A DNA stretch of 64,000 bases. It comes from Halalkalicoccus tibetensis (GTDB taxonomy: Archaea > Halobacteriota > Halobacteria > Halobacteriales > Halalkalicoccaceae). Position numbers and translations under genes: made by a program. Position 1 is the first letter of the stretch, and each line of letters begins with the position of its first letter. Below the pieces are notes generated by a model. That model was given only the letters and a program-made list of their open reading frames with translations. It was not told where the DNA came from and ran no database searches. Shown piece after piece: positions 37,028 to 47,407 of the stretch. Where the stretch lies: assembly GCF_037996645.1 (NCBI RefSeq), contig NZ_JBBMXV010000003.1:739010-803009 (forward strand), given 5' to 3'.

Positions 37028-38284
37028 TCAGTCTGTCGCCCCGAACGGGTCGGTCTCGAGGCCCCGCTCGACCACCCGAACCCCGTCGAGCTCCTCGAGA
37101 GCGTCGAGGACCTCCCGCAGGTGCTCGGGACCGTTGCCCTCGACCGCGAGCTCCATCGGATGGCGGTTCGGGTCGTCGCCCGGACGCGGCTGGCCGCTCC
37201 CGACGTCCGCGAGCTTCGCCCCGCGCCCCGCGACCGCCTCCGCGATCGCGCCGACCCGCGAGCGGTTCGAGACCGCGACGCTGGGGGTCGCGTACCGCCC
37301 GAGCTCGACCAGCCCCCGCTCGACGAGCTCCGCGTGGTCGGTGAGGTCGGCGTTCCCCCCCGAGATCACGACCGCCACGTCCTCGCCCTCGACGTCGACC
37401 GCGCCCGACAGCAGCACCGCGAGGGGGGCCGCGCCCGCCGGCTCGGCCACCGTCTTCGCGCGCTCGGCCAGCAGCGCAGTCGCCGCCGCGATCGCGCCGT
37501 CGGAGACCGCCACGACGCCGTCGACCCGCCCGCGCATCGTCTCGAACGTCGTCTCGAGGAGTCGAGTGTCGGCGATCCCGTCGGCGACGGTGTCGACCCC
37601 CTCGAGCTCGTGGATCTCGCCCTTCTCGAGCGACCGGCCCGCGTGGGCCGCGCCCTCGGGCTGGACGCCGACCACCCGAACGTCGGGGTCCTGGGCCTTC
37701 AGCGCGGTCGCGATCCCGCCGATCAGCCCACCCCCGCCGATCGCCACCAGGACGGTATCGAGTTCGGGATACTGTTCGAGCAGCTCGAGCCCGACCGTCC
37801 CCTGCCCGGCGATCACCCGCTCGTCGTCGAAGGGATGGACGAACTCCAGCCCGTCGCGCTCGGCGAGCTCGAGGGCGTGTTCGTAGGAGCGCTCGTAGAT
37901 GTCGCCCTCGACGACGACCCCCGCGCCGTAGCCACGAGTCGCGGCGATCTTCGCCGCCGGCGTGATCTCCGGGACGACGACGGTCGTCTCGATCCCCAGC
38001 AGGTCGCCCGCGAGCGCGACCCCCTGGGCGTGGTTGCCCGCGCTCGCCGTGATCACGCCCCGCTCGCGCTGGCCCTCGGAGAGCTGGGCCATGCAGTTGT
38101 ACGCGCCGCGGATCTTGAACGAGCCCGTGCGCTGGGCGTTCTCCAGTTTGAGGCCCACGGAGCGCGCCCCGCTCATCCACGCGAACGTCGTCGAGCGGTC
38201 CAGCGGCGTCCGGTGAACCACCTCTCCGAGCCGTTCGCGGGCCGCCTCGACGTCCCCGACCGAGACCGGGCGCTCCCCGCTCAT
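37028..38284 (-). CDS. ilvA: Threonine ammonia-lyase
   Basis: PLP enzyme converting threonine to 2-oxobutyrate and ammonia, first step of isoleucine synthesis. The 418-residue protein has TGSFKIRGAYN (PLP lysine), ITASAGNHAQGVALAG, the phosphate-binding glycine loop AIGGGGLIGGIA, VISGGNADL, and a C-terminal ACT-type regulatory part (about 335-415, RYATPSVAVSNRSRVGAIAE onward). The ACT part argues for a biosynthetic or regulated IlvA rather than the ACT-less EutB of hydroxyectoine breakdown, which is the alternative worth noting because of the neighbouring block. Divergent from the diaminobutyrate-type aminotransferase gene. Confidence 0.92.
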   Translation of the reverse strand: MSGERPVSVGDVEAARERLGEVVHRTPLDRSTTFAWMSGARSVGLKLENAQRTGSFKIRGAYNCMAQLSEGQRERGVITASAGNHAQGVALAGDLLGIETTVVVPEITPAAKIAATRGYGAGVVVEGDIYERSYEHALELAERDGLEFVHPFDDERVIAGQGTVGLELLEQYPELDTVLVAIGGGGLIGGIATALKAQDPDVRVVGVQPEGAAHAGRSLEKGEIHELEGVDTVADGIADTRLLETTFETMRGRVDGVVAVSDGAIAAATALLAERAKTVAEPAGAAPLAVLLSGAVDVEGEDVAVVISGGNADLTDHAELVERGLVELGRYATPSVAVSNRSRVGAIAEAVAGRGAKLADVGSGQPRPGDDPNRHPMELAVEGNGPEHLREVLDALEELDGVRVVERGLETDPFGATD

Positions 38285-38418: not shown

Positions 38419-38438
38419 GAATCGAATTCCGTATACGG
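38419..38438. promoter_or_regulatory. Weak copy of shared dyad operator, aminotransferase promoter
   Basis: Bases 38429-38438 form the palindrome CCGTATACGG; on the minus strand the 20-base stretch reads CCGTATACGGAATTCGATTC, similar to the site before doeA (TATACGGATTCCG). It lies about 25 bases upstream of the TATA-like GATAAGCTATTTAG (38456-38469) of the gene starting at 38493. Confidence 0.45.
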
Positions 38439-38492
38439 CACTTTCGGTAACCGTTGATAAGCTATTTAGTGGTGGTCGCCATGGGGTGGCAC

Positions 38493-39848
38493 ATGGCAGG
38501 ACCACCGATCGAGGAGCTCCACTTCGACGCGCCGGACGTCGGCGAGGTGCCGGGATCCGAATCGAAGCGGCTGCTCGAGAGACAGCGCGAGATCGACAGC
38601 AGCGCCGTCGCCTACCCCAACTCCATGCCGCTGGCCTTCGAGGAGGGGAAGGGGGCGACGCTCCGGGACGCCGACGGCAACACGTTCATCGACCTCTTCG
38701 CGGGGATCGGCGTGCTCAACGTGGGTCATTCGAATCCCTACGTGATGGAGGCGGTCCACGAGCAGGCCGACAAGCTCGTCCACACCGTCGACTTCCCCAG
38801 CGAACCGCGCCTCGAACTGATCGAGAAGCTCGACGAGATCGCGCCGGGCGAGCTCGCGGGCGATAATCGAGTCGTCTTCGGCGGGCCGACCGGCAGCGAC
38901 GCGATCGAGGCCGCGATCAAGCTCGCGAAGTACAACACCGGCGGCACCGGTCTGATCGGCTTCCGTGGAGCCTATCACGGCCCCACGAGCGGCCCGATGA
39001 GCCTCACCTCGAACAAGAAGTTCAAGGGCCACTACACCCCGCTGCTCCCGGACGTCGTCCACGCGCCCTATCCCTATCCCTTCCGGCAGGGCAAGACCGA
39101 GGACGAGGCCGTGAAGGACGCCCTCGAGGAGGTACGCTCGATCGTCGAGGACCCCTACGGCGGGCTCGCCAACCCGGCGGGGATCTTCGCCGAGCCCATC
39201 CAGGGCGAGGGCGGGGTCGTCGTCCCGCCGGAGGGCTTCCTCGAGGGGCTGCGTGAGATCGCCACCGACAACGCCCTCCCCCTCGTCTTCGACGAGATCC
39301 AGTCGGGACTGGGCCGCTCGGGCGAGTGGTTCGCCTGCGAGCACTTCGACGTGACGCCCGACGCGATGACGATGGCGAAAGCCTTGGGCGGGGCCGGCTT
39401 CCCCCTCTCGGCGACGATGTACCGCGAGGAACTCGACACCTGGGGCCCGGGCGACCACGCCGGCACCTACCGGGGCCACGTCGTCGCGATGCGCGCGGGC
39501 ACGCGGGCCATCGAGTACATCCAGGCCCACGACCTGCTGGCTCACGCCCGCGAGCTCGGCGAATACCTCCGGCAACGGCTGCGCGAGGCCGGCGAGGGCA
39601 ACGAGCTGCTCGCAGAAGTACGAGGAAAGGGGCTGTTCATCGGCGCGGAGTTCTCGCTCGACGGCGAGCCCGCCGACTGGGTCGTCGACAATATCCAGCA
39701 GTACTGCTACGAACACGGCGTGCTCGTCTGGACCGCCGGCCGCCAGGGCAACGTCCTTCGCCTGCTGCCGCCGCTCGTGCTCACCCACGAGCTGGCCGAG
39801 GTCGCGATGGACGTCGTCTGCGACGCGATCGAGCAGGCGTCCCTCTGA
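38493..39848 (+). CDS. Class III aminotransferase, diaminobutyrate-type
   Basis: PLP-dependent aminotransferase of 451 residues. Motifs: [39 protein letters not shown] (the GPTGSDAxEAAxKLA form is typical of 2,4-diaminobutyrate and GABA transaminases), [36 protein letters not shown], and the PLP lysine in [15 protein letters not shown]. Best guess: L-2,4-diaminobutyrate:2-oxoglutarate aminotransferase giving aspartate semialdehyde, the DoeD step of ectoine breakdown; GABA or ornithine as substrate cannot be excluded. ATG 38493 is 27 bases after a TATA-like CTATTTAG and is preferred to in-frame starts at 38481 and 38454. Upstream lies a palindrome related to the block's shared operator. Confidence 0.85.
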
Positions 39849-39930
39849 TCCCGTCCGGATCCGGACGTTCGTTTCGCTTTCCCCTTCTCTCGGCAGTCAG
39901 TAAACGTAATATGTGTGTGCTATCTACAGT

Positions 39931-39950
39931 AATCGGAACCGTTATTACGG
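39931..39950. promoter_or_regulatory. Dyad AACCGT-N4-ACGGTT upstream of BCCT gene
   Basis: Bases 39937-39952 read AACCGTTATTACGGTT, a perfect 6-bp inverted repeat with a 4-base spacer. On the minus strand the 20-base stretch CCGTAATAACGGTTCCGATT shares ACGGTTCC with the operator before the second aminotransferase. It is 150 bases before the transporter start, in an AT-rich promoter region with TAATATG at 39907. A related but weaker member of the motif set. Confidence 0.4.
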
Positions 39951-40012
39951 TTGTTGACGATTGTGGTCGATAGGTGACAGCACATACCATGATGGGGGAT
40001 GGATGGCGAGAG

Positions 40013-40036
40013 GCCCTCGGGGCGAGCCCCGAGGGC
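40013..40036. repeat. 24-base perfect hairpin in the BCCT 5' leader
   Basis: GCCCTCGGGGC (40013-40023), GA, then its exact complement (40026-40036): an 11-bp stem with a two-base loop. It lies between the probable promoter and the BCCT start codon at 40099, so it may be an RNA structure in the leader or another member of the short palindromes seen at 1418-1606. Confidence 0.6.
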
Positions 40037-40098
40037 GGCCGAAACGCCGTACCGAGAGATAGTTACGACCGACCCGTCGCCGGAAGGGGAGCCTGACC

Positions 40099-41733
40099 GT
40101 GTCCGACGACGAGCTCGGCGCGTTCGGCCGGTTCCGCGAGGAGATCGACCCGATCGTCTTCCTGGTCGGCGCCGCGATAACGATGAGCGTCATCGTGACG
40201 TTCTTCATCGATCCCACCGCCGTACAGAACGCGATCGGCTACCTCAACGGGGTGATGAACCAGTACCTGAACTGGGTGCTGCTCGTGATCGTCTTCCTGA
40301 TCGTCCTCTTCCTGATCTTCCTCATCCTCGGTCCGTGGGGCAAGATCAAGTTCGGCGACGAACCCCCCGAGTACAGCTTCGTCTCCTTCTTCACGATGCT
40401 CTACTCGGCGGGCTTCGCCGCGGGCGTGGTGTTCTGGGGGCCGACGGAGGCGCTGTTCTACTACGCCGACCCCTCGCCGCTGTTCGGCGTCGAGGCGGGG
40501 TCGGCCGAGGCGATCACCATCGCGGTCCAGCAGACGCTCTTCCACTGGGCGCTGCCCCAGCTTGCGGTCTTCACGATCATGGGGATCGCGATCGGCTACT
40601 TCGCCTACAACTACGAGGGCGTCCCCCTGCGGGTGTCCTCGGCGCTGACCCCGATCCTCGGCAAGGACAACCTCGACGGCCCCGCGGCGAAGGTGATCGA
40701 CATCCTCGCGGTGTTCGCGACCATCGGCGGCGTCGCCACCTCGCTGGGCTTCATCGGCAGCCAATTCATCAGCGGGCTGGAGTTCCAGTGGGGGATCGAC
40801 CTCGGCAACACCGGCATCCTGCTGGTGGTGACGACGATGACGCTGCTCTTCACCGTCTCGATGGTCCTCGGCGTCGACAAAGGGATCCGGCGGCTCTCCA
40901 ACTTCAACATGATCCTCTTCGTCACGCTCATGCTCGTGACGTTCATCGTCGGACCGTCCGTGTTCCTCGTTCTCCTCGGAACCCAGGCCGTCGGGGGAAT
41001 GATCAGCGACTTCGTCTCGATGAGCCTCTTCACCGGTGCCGGCGTCGAGGGCGGTACCGAGTGGACCAACGCCTGGACGGTCTTCTACTGGGCGTGGGCG
41101 CTCTCGTGGTCGCCCTTCGCGGGCCTGTTCATCGCGCGGATCTCGAAGGGGCGGACGGTCAGGGAGGTCGCCTTCACGGGCATCGCCGCGACCTCCGCGG
41201 CGACCATCCCCTGGTTCACCTTCATCGGCGGCACGGCCGTCTGGGCCCAGCACACCGGCGTCGCCGACTTCAGCGCGGTGATCGCCGGCGAGATCGGCCC
41301 GGAGACCTCCGGCTTCATCCTCTTCGAGGCGTTCCCCTTCGGGACGGTCCTGATGATCTCCTTTATGATCCTGGTGACGACGTTCTTCATCACGTCGGCG
41401 GACTCCTCGACGCTCGCCGTCTCGATGATGACCACCGGCGGGAAGGCGAGCCCCTCGACGATCAACCGGGTCTTCTGGGGCGTCGTTCTGGGGCTGACCG
41501 CCGCGATCCTCATGATCATCGGCGGCGAGGGCGGGGCCGAGGCGCTCCAGCAGGCGGTCGTCATCACCGGCGCACCGTTCGCGTTCGTCTGTTTCCTCGC
41601 GATGCTCGGGCTCGCGAAACAGTTCAGCGCGAACCACGGCCGCGTGATCCTCCAGGACGGCGCGTGGATCATCGGCTCCGGCCCCGACCGTGAGCAGCCC
41701 GCAGAGGCCCCGGCGACCGGCGATGACGATTGA
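40099..41733 (+). CDS. BCCT family compatible-solute transporter
   Basis: Sodium-coupled betaine/choline/carnitine-type carrier, 544 residues with twelve helices. Motifs: GDEPPEYSFVSFFTMLYSAG (with the glycine-rich unwound helix GFAAGVVFWGPTEALFYY), and the BCCT signature WTVFYWAWALSWSPFAGLFI with ARISKGRTVREV. Such carriers bring in glycine betaine, choline, carnitine or ectoine. Context with a DoeA-type hydrolase suggests a solute that is then broken down, possibly ectoine. GTG start at 40099. The acidic C-terminal tail ends GDDD. Upstream leader holds a perfect hairpin and a dyad related to the local operator. Confidence 0.93.
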   Translation: MSDDELGAFGRFREEIDPIVFLVGAAITMSVIVTFFIDPTAVQNAIGYLNGVMNQYLNWVLLVIVFLIVLFLIFLILGPWGKIKFGDEPPEYSFVSFFTMLYSAGFAAGVVFWGPTEALFYYADPSPLFGVEAGSAEAITIAVQQTLFHWALPQLAVFTIMGIAIGYFAYNYEGVPLRVSSALTPILGKDNLDGPAAKVIDILAVFATIGGVATSLGFIGSQFISGLEFQWGIDLGNTGILLVVTTMTLLFTVSMVLGVDKGIRRLSNFNMILFVTLMLVTFIVGPSVFLVLLGTQAVGGMISDFVSMSLFTGAGVEGGTEWTNAWTVFYWAWALSWSPFAGLFIARISKGRTVREVAFTGIAATSAATIPWFTFIGGTAVWAQHTGVADFSAVIAGEIGPETSGFILFEAFPFGTVLMISFMILVTTFFITSADSSTLAVSMMTTGGKASPSTINRVFWGVVLGLTAAILMIIGGEGGAEALQQAVVITGAPFAFVCFLAMLGLAKQFSANHGRVILQDGAWIIGSGPDREQPAEAPATGDDD

Positions 41734-41778
41734 CCGATCCCGGGCGACCCGGCCGCATCCGGAAGGGTTTTCAGACGA

Positions 41779-41798
41779 CGTACACGGTTTTTGTGTAT
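41779..41798 (+). promoter_or_regulatory. Strong copy of shared dyad operator over the start codon
   Basis: CGTACACGGTTTTTGTGTAT, containing the perfect dyad TACAC-N7-GTGTA. It matches 18 of 20 bases of the site at 43768-43787 and 16 of 20 of that at 47388-47407. Its last two bases are the first two of the ATG at 41797, the same register as at 47388-47407, so a bound protein would block the transcription start of this leaderless gene. Confidence 0.6.
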
Positions 41799-42456
41799 GA
41801 CGGATGAGGGCGCGGCGAACGAGCAGTCGGTGGTCGACGGCCTCGCGTTCGATCCCGACCGGGATCGGGGCGTGTTGACCCCGAGTGACCGGGAGTTCCT
41901 GCTGGGCCGGAAGACCGACTACACCGACCACTCGAAGAAACAGAAACGAAACCGGATCCGGCGGCGGGTCCGCAACGCGCTGCTCGACTTCACCATCCTC
42001 TTCGATCACCTCGACGAGCGCGACCGCGAGACCGTCTTCGACCCCGAGGACGAGGAGCGCGACGCCTACACCCGCGGGATCACCGACACGCTGGCCTTCC
42101 TCCACCTGGGGACGATGGGCTACTCGACGCCGTTCAAACAGATGCTCGCCCGCGGGGTCTCGAAGGGCGAACAGGAGCTTGCGGGTTCGGACTACCGGAT
42201 GGTCAACGTCGAGTTCAACGTCGACCCCGTCGGACGGATCGACGTCGACGAGGTGGTCGAAAAGCTCGACGACGGTCGGTTCGATGAGCTCACCGACGAG
42301 GAGCTGCGCGCGTTCGCCCGGCTGCTGGCCGAGAGCGGGGAGTTCTCGGCCGCCCCGATCCGCGAGGGGATCAAGGGACAGATGGACGAGTTCGCAGAGC
42401 GGGCCGCAGAAGCCGCCGACCGGCGCGAGGAGCGCATCGACGAGCTGACCGACTAG
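41797..42456 (+). CDS. Haloarchaeal conserved protein (DUF5806-like)
   Basis: A 219-residue acidic soluble protein. A conserved-looking block at about residues 27-80 (REFLLGRKTDYTDHSKKQKR, then RIRRRVRNALLDFTILFDHL) is rich in basic residues, followed by a helical middle (ITDTLAFLHLGTMGYSTPFK) and a coiled-coil-like C-terminus. I associate it with the halobacterial family DUF5806 but cannot verify this. The basic YTDHSKKQKRNRIRRR stretch might bind nucleic acid; function is unknown. Its start codon is overlapped by the strongest copy of the block's shared dyad, so it probably belongs to the same regulon. The stop overlaps the convergent M20 gene by four bases. Confidence 0.75.
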   Translation: MTDEGAANEQSVVDGLAFDPDRDRGVLTPSDREFLLGRKTDYTDHSKKQKRNRIRRRVRNALLDFTILFDHLDERDRETVFDPEDEERDAYTRGITDTLAFLHLGTMGYSTPFKQMLARGVSKGEQELAGSDYRMVNVEFNVDPVGRIDVDEVVEKLDDGRFDELTDEELRAFARLLAESGEFSAAPIREGIKGQMDEFAERAAEAADRREERIDELTD

Positions 42457-43733
42457 GGACGTTCGGCCGCGATCCGCTCGATCGAGCCGACGAGCACGTC
42501 GACGGCGATCCCGAGGCTCTCCTCGTCGACGTCGAAGTGGGGGGTGTGGTGGCTGTCGGGGTGGTCCGTACCGACGACGAGATAGGAGGCGAGCCCGCCG
42601 GCCTCCTGGACCGCCTCCATGAGGAAGGTGGCGTCCTCGCTCGCGCCGAACTCCGCGCTCCTGAGGGGAGTGTCGACCCCGTCGGTCCCGGACGCGACGC
42701 CGTCGACGAGGGCCGCGAGCTCGGGGTCGCTGTCCGCGCGGGGCGACTCGCTGTGGACGTCGACGTCGACCTCACAGCCGTGCATCCGCGCGGCCGCCTC
42801 GAAGGTCCGCTCGAAGCGTTCCTTCATCGACTCCATCAGCCGGGTGGTCTCGCCGCGGACCTCCGCGGTGACCGAGACCTCCTCGGCGATGATGTTGCTG
42901 GTCGTCCCGCCCTCGACCCGGCCGACGTTCACCCGGGTCATGCCCTCGGCGTGCCGGGGGATCCCGTAGGCGTTGCTCACCGCCGTCGCCATCGCCTGGA
43001 TTGCGTTCGCCCCCTCGTCGGGCTCCTTGCCCGCGTGGGCCGACCGGCCGTGGATCTCGGCGTGTAGGTGGCTCATCGCGAGGGGCTTCTCGATCCCGGC
43101 GACGACCTCGCCGGTGGGATGGTCGAGCCCGACGTGGACACAGAGCAGGTACTCGATCCCCTCCATGTAGGGGCCCTCGGCCATCGGCCGCCCGCCGCCG
43201 CCGTCCTCCTCGGCGGGCTGGAAGAAGACGGTGAGGGTGCCCTCGAAGTCGCTCTCCTTCACTGCCTCGAGCACCCCGAGCCCGATCGTCATGTGGGCGT
43301 CGTGTCCGCAGGCGTGCATCACCCCCTCGTGTTCCGAGCGAAAGCCCTCGCGCGCCGGGAGGTGACCCTCGTCGGCGGCCTCCTCGATGAACAGCCCGTC
43401 GATGTCGACCCGCAGCCCGATCGAGGGGCCCTCGCCACACTCGAGGACGGCCACACAGCCCGTATAACCACCCTCACAGGCCGCGAGGACGTCCTCTCGC
43501 GCGCCGGCGGCACGCGCGCGCTCGAACCATCGCTCCAGCTCCTCGTCGTCCGGAACCGCCATCCGTTCCTCGCCGTCCATCGCCTCGCGACCCACCGCGA
43601 GCTCGTCCACTCCCACCCGCTCGAGCTCGTCGACCAACAGGCTCGTCGTGTAGAACTCCCGCCAGGCCGGCTCCGGATACCGGTGGAACGCCCGTCGCCA
43701 CTCGACCAGCCGGTCGTGCATCACCCGTGCCAT
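42453..43733 (-). CDS. M20 family amidohydrolase/N-deacylase
   Basis: Metal-dependent peptidase/deacylase, 426 residues. It has WRRAFHRYPEPAWREFYTTS at the N-terminus, the metal motif VMHACGHDAHMTIGLGVLEA, PAEEDGGGG (catalytic Glu and metal ligand), a dimerisation domain with GRSAHAGKEPDEGANAIQA, and GTDHPDSHHTPHFDVDEES at the C-terminus. It resembles AbgA/N-acyl-amino-acid amidohydrolases. In this block it could remove the acetyl group from N-acetyl-diaminobutyrate, replacing DoeB (inference). ATG 43733 is leaderless behind a TTTTTAAG box (43762-43769); a frame eight codons longer is rejected. A strong operator copy overlaps that TATA box. Confidence 0.88.
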   Translation of the reverse strand: MARVMHDRLVEWRRAFHRYPEPAWREFYTTSLLVDELERVGVDELAVGREAMDGEERMAVPDDEELERWFERARAAGAREDVLAACEGGYTGCVAVLECGEGPSIGLRVDIDGLFIEEAADEGHLPAREGFRSEHEGVMHACGHDAHMTIGLGVLEAVKESDFEGTLTVFFQPAEEDGGGGRPMAEGPYMEGIEYLLCVHVGLDHPTGEVVAGIEKPLAMSHLHAEIHGRSAHAGKEPDEGANAIQAMATAVSNAYGIPRHAEGMTRVNVGRVEGGTTSNIIAEEVSVTAEVRGETTRLMESMKERFERTFEAAARMHGCEVDVDVHSESPRADSDPELAALVDGVASGTDGVDTPLRSAEFGASEDATFLMEAVQEAGGLASYLVVGTDHPDSHHTPHFDVDEESLGIAVDVLVGSIERIAAERP

Positions 43734-43767
43734 TCTCTCACAACGTCGTTGCTCCACCCACTTAAAA

Positions 43768-43787
43768 ATACACAGAAACCGTGGACG
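43768..43787 (-). promoter_or_regulatory. Strong copy of shared dyad operator at M20 promoter
   Basis: On the minus strand CGTCCACGGTTTCTGTGTAT. It runs into the TATA box of the M20 deacylase gene (TTTTTAAG, 43762-43769) and lies in the divergent region shared with the D-2-hydroxyacid dehydrogenase gene, so one bound protein could act on both. 18 of 20 bases match the site at 41779-41798. Confidence 0.6.
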
Positions 43788-43829
43788 TCGAATACGAAGA
43801 CTTTAGCGCGGGGCGTCCGATCGGGGGGA

Positions 43830-44804
43830 ATGGTAGCCATGACCGAAGACACACCGGACGTAGTGGTGTTGCGCGAGGGCACCGAGGGGCTCTCGACCGA
43901 ACCGTACGCCGCGGAGCTACGCGAGCGACTGCCCGACCACGACGTGCGCCGGGCGGGGACGCCGAGCGAGGAGCGCGAACTGATCGAGCGCGCCCGGGTC
44001 GCCACCGGGGTGCGGATCGACGAGGCCCTCCTCGAGCGCGCCGAGGAGCTCGAGCTGTTCGCGTGTGCCTTCGCGGGCACCGAACACCTCCCGATCGAGG
44101 CGCTGCGCGAACGGGGCGTGGCGGTGACCAACGCCGGCGGGATCCACGCGCCCGGGCTCGCGGAGGGCGTCCTGGGGAACATGCTCGTCTTCGCCCGCCG
44201 GCTCCACGAGGGCTGGCGGCGCAAGGGTAACAGGGAGTGGCGTCACTTCCAGTCCGGCGAGCTCACGGACAGTACGGTGACGGTCGTCGGCCTCGGATCG
44301 ATCGGGCAGGCGCTCGTGAAGCGACTGGAGGGCATGGAGGTCGACACCATTGGAGTGCGCTACTCGCCCGAAAAGGGCGGGCCGACCGACGAGGTGATCG
44401 GCTTCGAGGAGGATCCCCTTCACGACGCGCTCTCGCGCACCGACTACCTCGCGATCGCCTGCCCGCTGACGGAGACGACGAGAGGGCTGATCGGCGAGGC
44501 GGAGTTCGCGACCCTGCCCCCCGAGGCGGTCCTGATCAACACCGCCCGCGGGCCGATCGTCGACACCGACGCGCTGGTCGGGGCGATCCAGACCAACTCC
44601 ATCCGGGGCGCCGCGCTCGACGTGACCGACCCCGAGCCCCTCCCGCCGGAGCACGTCCTGTGGGGCTTCGAGAACGTGTTGATCACCCCGCATACGGGCG
44701 GGCACACCCCGAAACACTGGGAACGACTGGCGGAGATCGTCGCCGGAAACGTCGGGGCCCTCGAGGAGGGCGACGAGCTCGAAAACCTCGTGGCGTCGCC
44801 CTAA
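43830..44804 (+). CDS. D-2-hydroxyacid dehydrogenase
   Basis: NAD(P)-dependent dehydrogenase, 324 residues, with the two Rossmann-like domains of the family. Motifs: VVGLGSIGQALVKRLEGMEV (dinucleotide loop), INTARGPIVDTDALV (catalytic Arg region), ALDVTDPEPLPPEHVLWGFE (catalytic Glu region) and VLITPHTGGHTPKHWERLA (catalytic His). Substrate unknown; haloarchaea carry several such enzymes. The start at 43830 is 27 bases after ACTTTAGCG (about 43799-43807); an ATG at 43839 is also in frame. Divergent from the M20 gene over a region holding the shared operator; its stop overlaps that of the convergent DoeA-like gene. Confidence 0.9.
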   Translation: MVAMTEDTPDVVVLREGTEGLSTEPYAAELRERLPDHDVRRAGTPSEERELIERARVATGVRIDEALLERAEELELFACAFAGTEHLPIEALRERGVAVTNAGGIHAPGLAEGVLGNMLVFARRLHEGWRRKGNREWRHFQSGELTDSTVTVVGLGSIGQALVKRLEGMEVDTIGVRYSPEKGGPTDEVIGFEEDPLHDALSRTDYLAIACPLTETTRGLIGEAEFATLPPEAVLINTARGPIVDTDALVGAIQTNSIRGAALDVTDPEPLPPEHVLWGFENVLITPHTGGHTPKHWERLAEIVAGNVGALEEGDELENLVASP

Positions 44805-45982
44805 ACCGGGAAGACCTTCTGGGGGAACGACGAGAACCGTTCCGCTCCGTTGGCGGTCACGCGGAACGACTCGCTGATCTCGACGCCCAGCTCGTCGGTC
44901 CAGATCCCCGGAATCATGTGGAAGGTCATGTTCTCCTTCAATACTGTCTCGTCGCCCGGTCGAAGGCTCGCGGTGTGCTCGCCCCAGTCCGGCGGGTAGC
45001 CGAGGCCCATCGAGTAGCCGATGCGGTCCTCCTTCTCGATGCCGTGTCTCGCGATCGACTCGCGCCAGGCGAGCTCGACCTCCTCGCAGGTCACGCCCGG
45101 TTCCGCCCGATCGAGCGCCGCGTTCAGCCCCTCGACGACGACCTCAGAAACCCGCTTCATCTCGTCGGGCACCCCGCCGACCACGGCGGTCCGCGCGAGC
45201 GGCGAGTGGTACCGGTGGCGACAGCCCGCGAGCTCGACGATTACGGGGTCCCCATCGGAGAAGGGCTCGTCCGACCACGTCAGATGCGGCGTCCCGGTGT
45301 GCTCGCCCGAGGGCATCAGCGGGACGATCGCGGGGTAGTCGCCGCCGAACGCCTCGGTGCCCGCGATCAGGGTGTGGTAGATCTCCGCCGCGACCGTGGA
45401 CTCGGGGACGCCCTCGCCCATCGCGTCGATCCCCGCCTGCATCGCGGCCTCCGAGAGCTGGGTCGCCTGCTCGATCAGCTCGATCTCCCGGTTGGACTTC
45501 ACCACGCGCACCCAGCTTACCAGGAGGGTGGCGTCCGAGAACGTCGCCTCCGGGAGCTCCCTCTGGAGACGCTGGTGGGACTTCGCGGTGTAGTAGTAGG
45601 CGTCCATCTCGACGCCGACGTGGGTGTCGCCCCGGCCCATCTCTTCGATCACCCGGGCGACGAAGTCCATCGGGTGTTTCCCGACCGGCGACTGGACGTG
45701 GTCGTCGCTGTAGGGCCGGATGTTGTCGTGGTCGATCCAGACGGTGGCTCTCGCGCCGTTCGCGTCCATCTGCCGGCCGACCCAGACGGGCTGGTCGTGG
45801 TCCAGCGAGACGATCAGCCCCTGATGGACGTAAAACGACCAGCCGTCGTAGCCCGCGAGGTAGTTCATGTTCGCAGGGTCGGTCACGAACAGGGTCTCGA
45901 TCCCCTCCTCGCGCATGCGGTCTTTCGTTCGCTCCAGTCGTCGCTCGTACTCCGGTTGCTCGAACGGCTGCACGGTAATCAC
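44801..45982 (-). CDS. doeA: Ectoine hydrolase-like protein, M24 family (DoeA/EutD type)
   Basis: A 393-residue creatinase/prolidase-fold protein that follows the ectoine hydrolase DoeA pattern closely: VTDPANMNYLAGYDGWSFYV, VWVGRQMDANGARATVW, AFGGDYPAIVPLMPSGEH, GYPPDWGEHTASLRPGD and FHMIPGIWTDELGVEISES. Typical M24 metal ligands are missing: where aminopeptidases have D..G then DLTRT, this protein has VELAG and SPLART, as expected for the ectoine-ring hydrolase and not for a prolidase. Predicted reaction: ectoine to N-acetyl-2,4-diaminobutyrate. Start GTG 45982 is chosen from a TATA-like AAAACATAAG (about 46009-46018); a GTG six codons upstream is possible. Downstream of a second aminotransferase on the same strand. 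Confidence 0.82.
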   Translation of the reverse strand: MITVQPFEQPEYERRLERTKDRMREEGIETLFVTDPANMNYLAGYDGWSFYVHQGLIVSLDHDQPVWVGRQMDANGARATVWIDHDNIRPYSDDHVQSPVGKHPMDFVARVIEEMGRGDTHVGVEMDAYYYTAKSHQRLQRELPEATFSDATLLVSWVRVVKSNREIELIEQATQLSEAAMQAGIDAMGEGVPESTVAAEIYHTLIAGTEAFGGDYPAIVPLMPSGEHTGTPHLTWSDEPFSDGDPVIVELAGCRHRYHSPLARTAVVGGVPDEMKRVSEVVVEGLNAALDRAEPGVTCEEVELAWRESIARHGIEKEDRIGYSMGLGYPPDWGEHTASLRPGDETVLKENMTFHMIPGIWTDELGVEISESFRVTANGAERFSSFPQKVFPV

Positions 45983-46019
45983 TAACGAGTGCCACGACAC
46001 GGCGCCGCCACTTATGTTT

Positions 46020-46049
46020 TCGTATACGAGAACAACGGAATCCGTATAT
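46020..46049 (-). promoter_or_regulatory. Palindrome and related operator upstream of doeA
   Basis: Contains the palindrome TCGTATACGA (46020-46029) and, on the minus strand, ATATACGGATTCCGTTGTTC (46049-46030), related to the block's dyad but with one extra base in the middle. Both lie directly upstream of the TATA-like AAAACATAAG of the doeA-like gene, in the gap after the upstream aminotransferase. Confidence 0.45.
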
Positions 46050-47389
46050 CAGGCCGCGTCGATCGCCTCGCGGAACAGCTCGATGCCGAGCTCGATCTCG
46101 CGTTCGGTGACGTCGAGCGGCGGCAGCAGTCGGATCGTGCTGTGGCCACAGCCCAGCGTGAGCAGCCCGCGCTGGAGGCCCGCCTTCACGACGGCGTTCC
46201 GGCGCTCCTTCGTGTCGAACTCGACGGCGAGCATCAACCCCTTCCCCCTGACGTCCTCGACGCCCTCGGGGTCGGCGTCGCGCAGTAGCTCCTGCACCTG
46301 CCGGCCGCGCTCGACGGCGTTCTCGAGCAGGTCGTGCTCGTCGATCGCGTCGAGGGTGAGAACCCCTTGGGCCGCCGCGACGAGATCTCCCCCGCCCCAG
46401 GTTGAGCCCAGGCGGTTCTTCTCCTCGGGGAAGACGTCCGAGCGGGAGATCGTCGCCCCCGATCGGAGCGCCTTCGCGCTGCAGATCACGTCGGGCTCGA
46501 TCGAGTAGTGGTCGGCGGCCCACATCTCCCCGGTGCGGCCGACTCCCGACTGGATCTCGTCGACGATCAGGTGGACGTCGTGGGTCTCACAGACGCGCTG
46601 GACTTCGTCCATGAACGCGTCGCTCGGGAACCGGTAGCCGCCGACGCCCTGGACCGGCTCGAGGACCATGAAGGCGACCTCGGCGGGGTCCATGTAGCCC
46701 CGTTCGGGGTCGAGCATCCGCTCGAGCTGCGAGCGCCCGCCCGCGAAGAAGCCACACGAACAAGTCGACTCCTCGCAGGTGCGGTCCTCGCAGAACGGGA
46801 CGGTCCGCGTGCCGGCGATCTCGGGATAGGCGCGCGTGTAGACGTCGCCGGCGCGCGTCATCGAGAGCGTTCCGAGCGTCCGGCCGTGGAAGGCCCCGAG
46901 GAAGGTGATGCCGTACTTCCGTTCGGGGGTGTTCGCATACGAGATCTTCATCGCGTTCTCGATGGCCTCGGCCCCCGAGTTCGAGAGGAAGACCGTGTCC
47001 ATGTCGTACTGCGAGGACGCCTCGACGAGCCGCTCCATCAGTTGGGCCGCCCCCGGGATCTCGGGATCCTCCGGGCCGCCCGCGGACCCGGCGTAGAAGT
47101 CCTGGCCGGCGATCTTCAGGGGATCGACGAGGTCGAACTCGGCCATTCGATCCGTTATCTTCGGGTTGTTGTATCCCAGCGGCGCGGCGCCGATGTGGCA
47201 GGTGAAATCGAGGAAGACGTTGCCGTCGAGGTCGGTACAGAACGGTCCCTCCGCCTCCCCCGAGACGTCCCACGCGAACTCGTGGGCGTGCTCGCTGGGC
47301 GCGGAGTACTGGTGGTGGTACTCGACCCATTCGCGCGTGCGCTCCCCGGGGAGCCGCCGAACGCTCGGCTCCGCGTTATCACGATCCAT
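46049..47389 (-). CDS. Class III aminotransferase with Cys-rich insert
   Basis: A 446-residue PLP aminotransferase of the GABA/lysine/ornithine type. Motifs: DLDGNVFLDFTCHIGAAPLG, LSNSGAEAIENAMKISYANT, FLGAFHGRTLGTLSMT, LIVDEIQSGVGRTGEMWAAD and the PLP-lysine region VICSAKALRSGATISRS. An insert at about residues 207-225 (CEDRTCEESTCSCGF) has four cysteines spaced like a small metal site, reminiscent of the Cys motif of archaeal GabT-like enzymes. Substrate unknown; in context it could act on diaminobutyrate or a product of it. ATG 47389 is leaderless (GTTAATAAC box 25-30 bases upstream), with the operator site ending on the start codon. Probably cotranscribed with the doeA-like gene 66 bases downstream. 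Confidence 0.88.
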   Translation of the reverse strand: MDRDNAEPSVRRLPGERTREWVEYHHQYSAPSEHAHEFAWDVSGEAEGPFCTDLDGNVFLDFTCHIGAAPLGYNNPKITDRMAEFDLVDPLKIAGQDFYAGSAGGPEDPEIPGAAQLMERLVEASSQYDMDTVFLSNSGAEAIENAMKISYANTPERKYGITFLGAFHGRTLGTLSMTRAGDVYTRAYPEIAGTRTVPFCEDRTCEESTCSCGFFAGGRSQLERMLDPERGYMDPAEVAFMVLEPVQGVGGYRFPSDAFMDEVQRVCETHDVHLIVDEIQSGVGRTGEMWAADHYSIEPDVICSAKALRSGATISRSDVFPEEKNRLGSTWGGGDLVAAAQGVLTLDAIDEHDLLENAVERGRQVQELLRDADPEGVEDVRGKGLMLAVEFDTKERRNAVVKAGLQRGLLTLGCGHSTIRLLPPLDVTEREIELGIELFREAIDAA

Positions 47390-47407
47390 ACACAGGAACC
47401 GTATACA
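47388..47407 (-). promoter_or_regulatory. Strong copy of shared dyad operator over the start codon
   Basis: On the minus strand TGTATACGGTTCCTGTGTAT, whose final AT are the first two bases of the aminotransferase ATG (47389-47387). It lies between the TATA-like GTTAATAAC (about 47412-47420) and the start, so binding would block initiation. 16 of 20 bases match the sites at 41779 and 43768. Confidence 0.6.

What the first reader, a model, noticed from the sequence alone, without database searches (positions are those of the whole stretch)
38419..47407. Candidate haloarchaeal ectoine (or N-acetyl-diamino acid) uptake and catabolic regulon
Seen: within 9 kb a BCCT solute transporter, a diaminobutyrate-type class III aminotransferase, an M24 protein with long DoeA/EutD-like stretches, an M20 deacylase, a second class III aminotransferase, a D-2-hydroxyacid dehydrogenase and an unknown acidic protein. 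Known: in bacteria ectoine is opened by DoeA to N-acetyl-diaminobutyrate, deacetylated by DoeB, transaminated by DoeD and oxidised by DoeC. Inference: here the M20 enzyme takes the DoeB role and ectoine enters through the BCCT carrier. DoeB (AstE-type) and DoeC are not in the window, so the route would be a rewired version in archaea.
Basis: partly seen in the sequence, partly recalled or inferred. Interest (0 to 1): 0.85.

Follow-up and report, generated by a model that had tools for sequence, protein, structure and literature searches.

The report
Haloarchaeal DoeA-type ectoine-catabolism regulon
This salt-loving archaeon carries a gene set that probably lets it eat ectoine, a protective solute made mainly by bacteria; the set pairs one bacterial-type ring-opening enzyme with home-grown helper enzymes and a shared DNA control site, and none of it has yet been tested in the laboratory.

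Summary
In detail: all seven genes are present and intact. The M24 protein is not a prolidase. It is a DoeA/EutD-type protein: 384 bits to the solved Ruegeria DoeA against 121 to Pfu prolidase, all five prolidase metal ligands replaced as in DoeA, and about 60% identity to a Bacillota M24 encoded beside eutB and a EutC-like cyclodeaminase. Ectoine (or 5-hydroxyectoine) catabolism is the best reading, about 0.75; no substrate was shown. A 2026 paper (PMC13188858) already lists putative ectoine clusters in Halobacteria, as provisional.

New here:
(1) The module is larger. An IlvA paralogue (37028-38284) and the 'unknown acidic protein' belong to it. They occur in 23/30 and 25/30 M24-positive genomes, and in 0/30 negatives.
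(2) M20 and IlvA are native haloarchaeal paralogues, not DoeB2 or EutB, so similar roles appear to have been filled independently.
(3) The BCCT has lost the betaine aromatic box.
(4) A 15-bp palindrome (AYACRGNNNCYGTRT) marks the cluster promoters. A matrix trained without this genus puts its six best hits of the 64 kb there. It occurs at cluster promoters in 26/26 loci of genomes with the unknown protein and 1/5 without, making that protein the leading regulator candidate.

The parts
37028..38284 (-).
   Evidence: Cluster-type copy (>=61% identity) in 23/30 M24+ genomes and 0/30 M24- genomes, while an ordinary ilvA (<=52%) is in nearly all; its own clade, sister to haloarchaeal IlvA and apart from EutB; TIGR01127 393 bits
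38356..38372 (+). operator-like site upstream of ilvA-like gene
   Evidence: ACACAGCGACCGTTGAC, one of only 4 pattern matches in 64 kb; conserved in sister species
38420..38434 (.). palindromic operator-like site between ilvA-like gene and AT1
   Evidence: Held-out matrix, one of the top six hits of the 64-kb window
38481..39848 (+). class III aminotransferase AT1, candidate 2,4-diaminobutyrate transaminase (DoeD role)
   Evidence: DABA-transaminase families 392 and 326 bits, below cut-offs; in 29/30 M24+ and 1/30 M24- genomes; only 30% identical to an annotated DoeD-position aminotransferase
39902..39916 (.). palindromic operator-like site upstream of BCCT
   Evidence: Held-out matrix, second best hit of the window
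40099..41733 (+). BCCT transporter without the glycine-betaine aromatic box; candidate ectoine importer
   Evidence: PF02028 478 bits; BetP W194->L, Y197->F, W374->A in the close cluster relatives, W374->A or P in every aligned cluster one; box kept in another BCCT of the genome; W374 also lost in Bacillota cluster BCCTs
41782..41796 (.). palindromic operator-like site abutting the start codon of the candidate regulator
   Evidence: Best hit of the window, score 20
41797..42456 (+). 219-aa acidic protein, no Pfam family; candidate cognate regulator of the palindrome (inferred)
   Evidence: 25/30 M24+ versus 0/30 M24- genomes at >=59% identity; palindrome at cluster promoters in 26/26 loci with it, 1/5 loci without
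42453..43757 (-). M20 amidohydrolase (AbgA-like), candidate N-acetyl-diaminobutyrate deacetylase (DoeB role)
   Evidence: TIGR01891 260 bits over cut-off; DoeB2 model NF038260 only 112 bits, cut-off 550; nearest solved structure 3io1; cluster clade derived from haloarchaeal M20s
43770..43784 (.). palindromic operator-like site in the divergent M20/dehydrogenase promoter region
   Evidence: Pattern and held-out matrix
43839..44804 (+). D-2-hydroxyacid dehydrogenase; role unresolved
   Evidence: PF02826 and PF00389; beside M24/M20 in most loci; ubiquitous paralogue 55-69% identical
44801..45973 (-). M24-fold, metal-ligand-less ectoine hydrolase of DoeA/EutD type (GTG start probable)
   Evidence: TIGR02993 451 bits (cut-off 613), prolidase model 110; solved DoeA 6twk 384 bits; 69 of 115 DoeA-specific residues kept in >=95% of haloarchaeal copies, all five prolidase metal ligands replaced
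46033..46047 (.). palindromic operator-like site upstream of M24
   Evidence: Held-out matrix
46049..47389 (-). class III aminotransferase AT2; role unresolved
   Evidence: PF00202 273 bits; at the cluster in about 26 of 41 loci; paralogues common
47390..47404 (.). palindromic operator-like site abutting the AT2 start codon
   Evidence: Pattern and held-out matrix; a site at AT2 in 15 of 16 promoters tested

Best explanation
The locus is a substrate-induced regulon for importing and breaking down ectoine, probably 5-hydroxyectoine too, made by other organisms. Proposed route: the BCCT carrier imports the solute; the metal-free M24 enzyme opens the ring to N-alpha-acetyl-2,4-diaminobutyrate; the M20 enzyme removes acetate to give 2,4-diaminobutyrate; AT1 converts this to aspartate semialdehyde, passing nitrogen to glutamate; an aldehyde dehydrogenase elsewhere in the genome yields aspartate. 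For 5-hydroxyectoine, the IlvA-like dehydratase would act on 3-hydroxy-diaminobutyrate, as proposed for EutB. The palindrome at the promoters is the operator of one regulator, most likely the 219-aa protein at 41797-42456. Shown here by sequence: the DoeA-type nature of M24, the gene linkage, the altered BCCT site, and the shared palindrome with its link to the 219-aa protein. Inferred: substrate, induction, reaction order, regulator identity, and the roles of AT2 and the dehydrogenase.
For: M24: TIGR02993 451 bits against 110 for a prolidase model; nearest solved structures are Ruegeria DoeA; prolidase ligands D,D,H,E,E are E,P,Y,I,S in all 40 main-group haloarchaeal copies; DoeA-type assemblage split from the genome's prolidases with 99/99 support. 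Context of the nearest bacterial relatives: Priestia M24 (60%) beside eutB, a cyclodeaminase (EutC-like), M20, homoserine dehydrogenase and aldehyde dehydrogenase; Bacillota loci with M24 + M20 + aldehyde dehydrogenase + BCCT + aminotransferase; S. meliloti EhuABCD-M24-M20-racemase. Linkage. No ectoine synthase over threshold in 30 M24+ genomes, so the substrate would be imported. BCCT box loss. Operator: six best held-out hits in the window all at cluster promoters, scores 20-13 against 10.5 for the next; 60 simulated windows never had a sixth-best over 7.2; 0 of 449 background windows with a hit.
Against: The M24 score is below the DoeA equivalog cut-off (451 of 613). In the tree the haloarchaeal clades sit beside, not inside, the clade with the characterised DoeA, and the forks between DoeA, Bacillota and haloarchaeal groups are unresolved. 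M20, AT1 and IlvA are not orthologues of DoeB/DoeB2, DoeD or EutB. No DoeC in the cluster. AT2 and the dehydrogenase have no place in the known route. No biochemical or growth data exist. The palindrome-regulator link is a correlation with only five negative loci, not corrected for relatedness, and the fold prediction of the 219-aa protein failed (pLDDT 47).
Confidence: 0.75

Rival explanations
1. Same chemistry, different substrate: the M24 opens another cyclic amidine or amide (an ectoine homologue or other N-acyl-diamino-acid precursor), and the pathway yields an amino acid other than aspartate.
For: M24 is outside the clade of verified DoeA and 46 of 115 DoeA-specific invariant residues are not kept throughout the haloarchaeal copies; partner enzymes are non-orthologous; AT2, D-2-hydroxyacid dehydrogenase, glutamate dehydrogenase and FAD/Fe-S enzymes do not fit the known ectoine route.
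Against: The nearest Bacillota relatives (57-62%) lie with eutB, EutC-like, M20, aldehyde and homoserine dehydrogenase genes; ectoine is the abundant solute of this kind in brines (general knowledge).
Confidence: 0.17
2. Peptide or N-acyl amino acid utilisation: M24 as an Xaa-Pro peptidase and M20 as an aminoacylase, with transaminases for the released amino acids.
For: Database labels are generic ('M24 family metallopeptidase', 'amidohydrolase'); the M20 is AbgA-like.
Against: All five prolidase metal ligands are replaced in all haloarchaeal copies of the family examined, so a metallopeptidase is not expected; the tree separates M24 from the genome's own prolidases.
Confidence: 0.04
3. Osmoprotectant uptake locus: the BCCT serves salt adaptation, and the enzymes merely recycle the solute.
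For: BCCT carriers usually take up compatible solutes; haloarchaea do import such solutes (PMC5924519).
Against: Catabolic genes outnumber the transporter and share its palindrome; in several loci M24 sits without a BCCT or with an ABC transporter instead.
Confidence: 0.04

Closest known systems
Proteobacterial ectoine/5-hydroxyectoine catabolic clusters (eutABCDE-asnC-ssd-atf of Ruegeria pomeroyi; doe genes of Halomonas elongata)
   Same: A DoeA-type ring-opening enzyme, a deacylase, a transaminase, a dedicated transporter and common control
   Different: No DoeB (AstE type), DoeC, AsnC-type or EnuR regulator in the cluster; M20 instead of DoeB, an IlvA paralogue where EutB would be, BCCT instead of TRAP or Ehu ABC, and a different operator and candidate regulator
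Putative Bacillota clusters (pucR-eutBCD-atf, abgB-thrA-adh, BCCT; PMC13188858)
   Same: M24 57-62% identical; M20 amidohydrolase in place of EutE; BCCT without W374 in several; aminotransferase
   Different: M20 only 27% identical and of another lineage; true EutB/EutC there; PucR regulator; homoserine dehydrogenase and aldehyde dehydrogenase in the cluster
Putative Halobacteria ectoine clusters reported in PMC13188858 (April 2026)
   Same: The same kind of locus: EutD-like protein >55% identical to a Bacillus one, with aminopeptidase and aminotransferase genes and a BCCT
   Different: Among the passages of that paper read here there was no operator, regulator, IlvA paralogue, BCCT site analysis, co-occurrence test or active-site comparison for archaea; its supplementary figures could not be read
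DoeA_2/DoeB_2 (NCBIfam NF038259, NF038260)
   Same: M24 plus M20 pairing for ectoine breakdown
   Different: Window proteins score 237 and 112 bits against cut-offs 575 and 550

Membership tests
DoeA/EutD ectoine hydrolase | Score over the TIGR02993 equivalog cut-off (613 bits) | tested here: not met
   451 bits; Bacillota relatives in ectoine-like clusters also fall short, 500-531 bits
DoeA/EutD ectoine hydrolase | Pita-bread (M24) family protein without the prolidase metal ligands | tested here: met
   Pfu D209,D220,H284,E313,E327 correspond to E,P,Y,I,S; DoeA has E,P,Y,M,T (ligand identity from general knowledge)
DoeA/EutD ectoine hydrolase | Groups with DoeA, not with prolidases | tested here: met
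   99/99 branch separates DoeA-type proteins from prolidases; place relative to verified DoeA unresolved
DoeA/EutD ectoine hydrolase | Opens ectoine to N-alpha-acetyl-2,4-diaminobutyrate | not testable with these tools
   Needs enzyme assay
DoeB (AstE-type) or DoeB2 (M20-type) deacetylase | Over the family cut-off | tested here: not met
   AstE type best 87 of 403 bits in the genome; M20 protein 112 of 550 bits to DoeB2
EutB hydroxyectoine dehydratase | Groups with EutB rather than IlvA | tested here: not met
   Cluster clade is sister to haloarchaeal IlvA, 99/99; 35-38% identical to EutB
DoeD / diaminobutyrate transaminase | Over a family cut-off | tested here: not met
   AT1 392 of 671, 327 of 438 and 326 of 402 bits to three such models
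Glycine betaine BCCT (BetP type) | Aromatic box W189, W194, Y197, W374 | tested here: not met
   Only W189 kept in the window protein (box residues from general knowledge)
Ectoine catabolic gene cluster (as a system) | DoeA-type gene with transporter, deacylase and transaminase genes, conserved together | tested here: met
Ectoine catabolic gene cluster (as a system) | Growth on ectoine depends on it | not testable with these tools
   No strain work possible

The most novel reading that the evidence does not exclude
Haloarchaea gained one bacterial-type ectoine hydrolase and assembled the rest of an ectoine/hydroxyectoine pathway from duplicates of their own enzymes (an AbgA-like M20, an IlvA as a EutB stand-in). 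They put it under a new kind of transcription regulator, the 219-aa protein, which binds the palindrome AYACRGNNNCYGTRT and controls its own gene.
Probability: 0.4. Interest if true: 0.72.

Novelty: new variant of a known kind. Interest (0 to 1): 0.57.

Why it matters
Ectoine consumption was thought to be confined to Proteobacteria until recently (PMC5924519), and archaeal clusters are still only provisional (PMC13188858). About 37% of sampled Halobacteria genomes carry this M24 family. If it opens ectoine, ectoine made by bacteria in brines would be a widespread food for haloarchaea, with consequences for carbon and nitrogen flow there. The operator and candidate regulator make the idea directly testable by DNA binding and induction, and would add a new archaeal regulator family.

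Tried and rejected
Prolidase or creatinase reading of M24: rejected for prolidase on ligands and tree; creatinase was not placed in the tree, but the solved creatinases score far lower (57 bits or less). DoeB elsewhere in the genome: only weak AstE-like matches. EutB orthology of the IlvA-like gene: rejected. Ectoine synthesis by the host: no ectoine synthase over threshold. First M24 tree used wrongly extracted outgroup frames and was discarded. Fold prediction of the 219-aa protein from two sequences gave pLDDT 47 and was not searched; a profile search of solved structures found nothing; weak Pfam matches to it are chance. Distant paralogues of it lie in unrelated places, several near a valyl-tRNA synthetase-like gene, and gave no function. 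Identity cut-offs do not separate the cluster M20 cleanly from its paralogue (62-64% overlap), so only the tree is used for it.
Full report
What is there.

The M24 protein. NCBIfam's DoeA model scores 451 bits (cut-off 613) and a prolidase model 110. The nearest solved structures are Ruegeria pomeroyi DoeA (384 bits; organism from general knowledge of the entries); Pyrococcus prolidase has 121 and creatinase at most 57. Prolidase binds two metals through D, D, H, E, E (general knowledge); these columns read E, P, Y, M, T in Ruegeria DoeA and E, P, Y, I, S in all 40 main-group haloarchaeal copies. Of 115 residues invariant in a small DoeA clade and absent from prolidases, 69 are kept in at least 95% of those copies. 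A tree separates all DoeA-type proteins from the genome's prolidases with 99/99 support, but does not resolve the order of the DoeA, Bacillota and two haloarchaeal groups. It is therefore a DoeA-type protein, sister to rather than inside the characterised clade.

Linkage. M24 relatives occur in 144 of 391 Halobacteria genomes. In 40 loci taken from them, M20, HDH, AT2, BCCT, AT1, the IlvA-like gene and the 219-aa gene recur around M24 in shuffled orders; some loci add glutamate dehydrogenase, a large FAD/Fe-S dehydrogenase, RidA, an aldehyde dehydrogenase, an aldehyde:ferredoxin oxidoreductase (PF01314/PF02730), an IclR regulator or a Pot-type ABC transporter. In 30 M24-positive and 30 M24-negative genomes: AT1 29 versus 1; cluster-type IlvA (>=61% identity) 23 versus 0, although an ordinary ilvA is in nearly all; the 219-aa protein (>=59%) 25 versus 0. 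HDH and AT2 have widespread paralogues, so their membership rests on gene order. The negatives were drawn from genomes listed without a match and by elimination, and are not phylogenetically matched.

Relatives in bacteria. The nearest bacterial M24 proteins are from Bacillota (57-62%). In Priestia megaterium the gene stands beside eutB, a cyclodeaminase, M20, homoserine dehydrogenase and aldehyde dehydrogenase genes; other Bacillota loci combine M24 with M20, aldehyde dehydrogenase, BCCT and a DoeD-like aminotransferase. In a Sinorhizobium meliloti plasmid a DoeA-type M24 and an M20 follow the ectoine transporter genes ehuABCD, and a Rhizobium plasmid has M24, AsnC, M20, eutB and eutC. The M24 family is thus repeatedly found among ectoine genes, and M20 repeatedly stands where DoeB would be.

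Independent assembly. The haloarchaeal M20 is 27-32% identical to the bacterial cluster M20s and about 61% to a widespread haloarchaeal M20; the cluster copies form one clade (96/93) inside the haloarchaeal radiation. The IlvA-like protein is 35-38% identical to EutB and about 50% to haloarchaeal IlvA, again as its own clade (99/99). AT1 is 30% identical to the aminotransferase of a doe cluster. So only the first enzyme is clearly shared with bacteria; the M20 and the IlvA-like enzyme look like native duplicates in similar roles. That the roles are the same is inference.

Transporter. BetP's betaine box is W189, W194, Y197, W374 (general knowledge). The window BCCT keeps only the first (L, F, A at the others); every aligned cluster BCCT has A or P at 374; another BCCT of the same genome keeps the box. 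BCCTs in three Bacillota M24 clusters have V or A at 374. This argues against betaine; it does not prove ectoine.

Operator. ACACARNAACCGTNNAC with up to two mismatches occurs four times in 64 kb, all in promoter regions of this cluster, and recurs at the same places in sister species and other families. The element is a palindrome, about AYACRGNNNCYGTRT. A symmetric matrix trained only on loci of other genera gives six top hits in the window: 41782, 39902, 43770, 46033, 38420 and 47390 (scores 20 to 13; next 10.5), one for each promoter region of the cluster; 60 simulated sequences never had a sixth-best over 7.2. In relatives, AT2 has a site in 15 of 16 promoters tested, M24 in 17 of 26, BCCT in 12 of 17; background 275-bp windows 0 of 449. 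Sites also precede RidA, an aldehyde dehydrogenase and an ABC transporter gene in some loci.

Regulator. At least one cluster promoter has a site in 26 of 26 loci of genomes with the 219-aa protein, and in 1 of 5 loci of genomes without it (89 of 160 promoters against 1 of 24; one-sided Fisher p 1.6e-4 and 6e-7, not corrected for relatedness). The negatives include a genome of the window's own family (G256/L051). The gene has the best site of the window against its own start codon. This makes it the leading candidate regulator; DNA binding is not shown, no fold could be predicted, and no relative has a known function.

Proposed working. Import by BCCT; ring opening by M24; deacetylation by M20; transamination by AT1 to aspartate semialdehyde; oxidation by an aldehyde dehydrogenase such as L089, whose relatives lie near M24 in four other loci. 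The host has no ectoine synthase over threshold. The IlvA-like enzyme would serve the hydroxyectoine branch, which is also optional in bacteria. AT2 and HDH remain unexplained.

What is known. Ectoine consumption was described as restricted to Proteobacteria in 2018 (PMC5924519). A paper of April 2026 (PMC13188858) reports putative clusters in Bacilli, Clostridia, Actinomycetes and Halobacteria with, in archaea, aminopeptidase, aminotransferase and BCCT genes, and calls them provisional. The present finding is an instance of that. The operator, the candidate regulator, the IlvA paralogue, the separate origin of M20 and the transporter site were not in the passages of it that were read.

Noticed in passing
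L042-L046, between HDH and M24 (e.g. L043:7566-8957); window 44801-44804: Sister Halalkalicoccus genomes carry a 453-484-aa FAD-dependent oxidoreductase (malate:quinone-oxidoreductase-like by eye) between HDH and M24; in the window it is missing and the two genes overlap by 4 bases.
   Followed up: partly
L067, L068, L070, L099:26869-28050: A second haloarchaeal DoeA-type M24 clade (about 55% identical to the window's), in three loci beside a DadA-like oxidase gene and in two of them a Pot-type ABC transporter; possibly a different substrate.
   Followed up: partly
L107 (G000:C4:386500-393500): Another BCCT of the genome (46% identical to the cluster one) lies next to a third IlvA-like gene, a second BCCT-IlvA pairing.
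   Followed up: no
L160, L163, L166, L167: Paralogues of the 219-aa protein lie between a valyl-tRNA synthetase-like gene and a large membrane protein gene in several haloarchaeal genomes; family function unknown.
   Followed up: partly
L133: Moorella stamsii (an anaerobe) carries two DoeA-type M24 genes about 60% identical to the window's, with an eutB-like and an M20 gene.
   Followed up: no
L148-L156, L159: SAR11/Alphaproteobacteria single-cell genomes and MAGs carry a DoeA-type M24 (42-45%) with an EhuA-like ATPase gene nearby in many.
   Followed up: no
L098, L093, L132-L139: Some Bacillota loci also contain single matches to the haloarchaeal operator matrix; their AT-rich sequence makes these hard to judge.
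   Followed up: no
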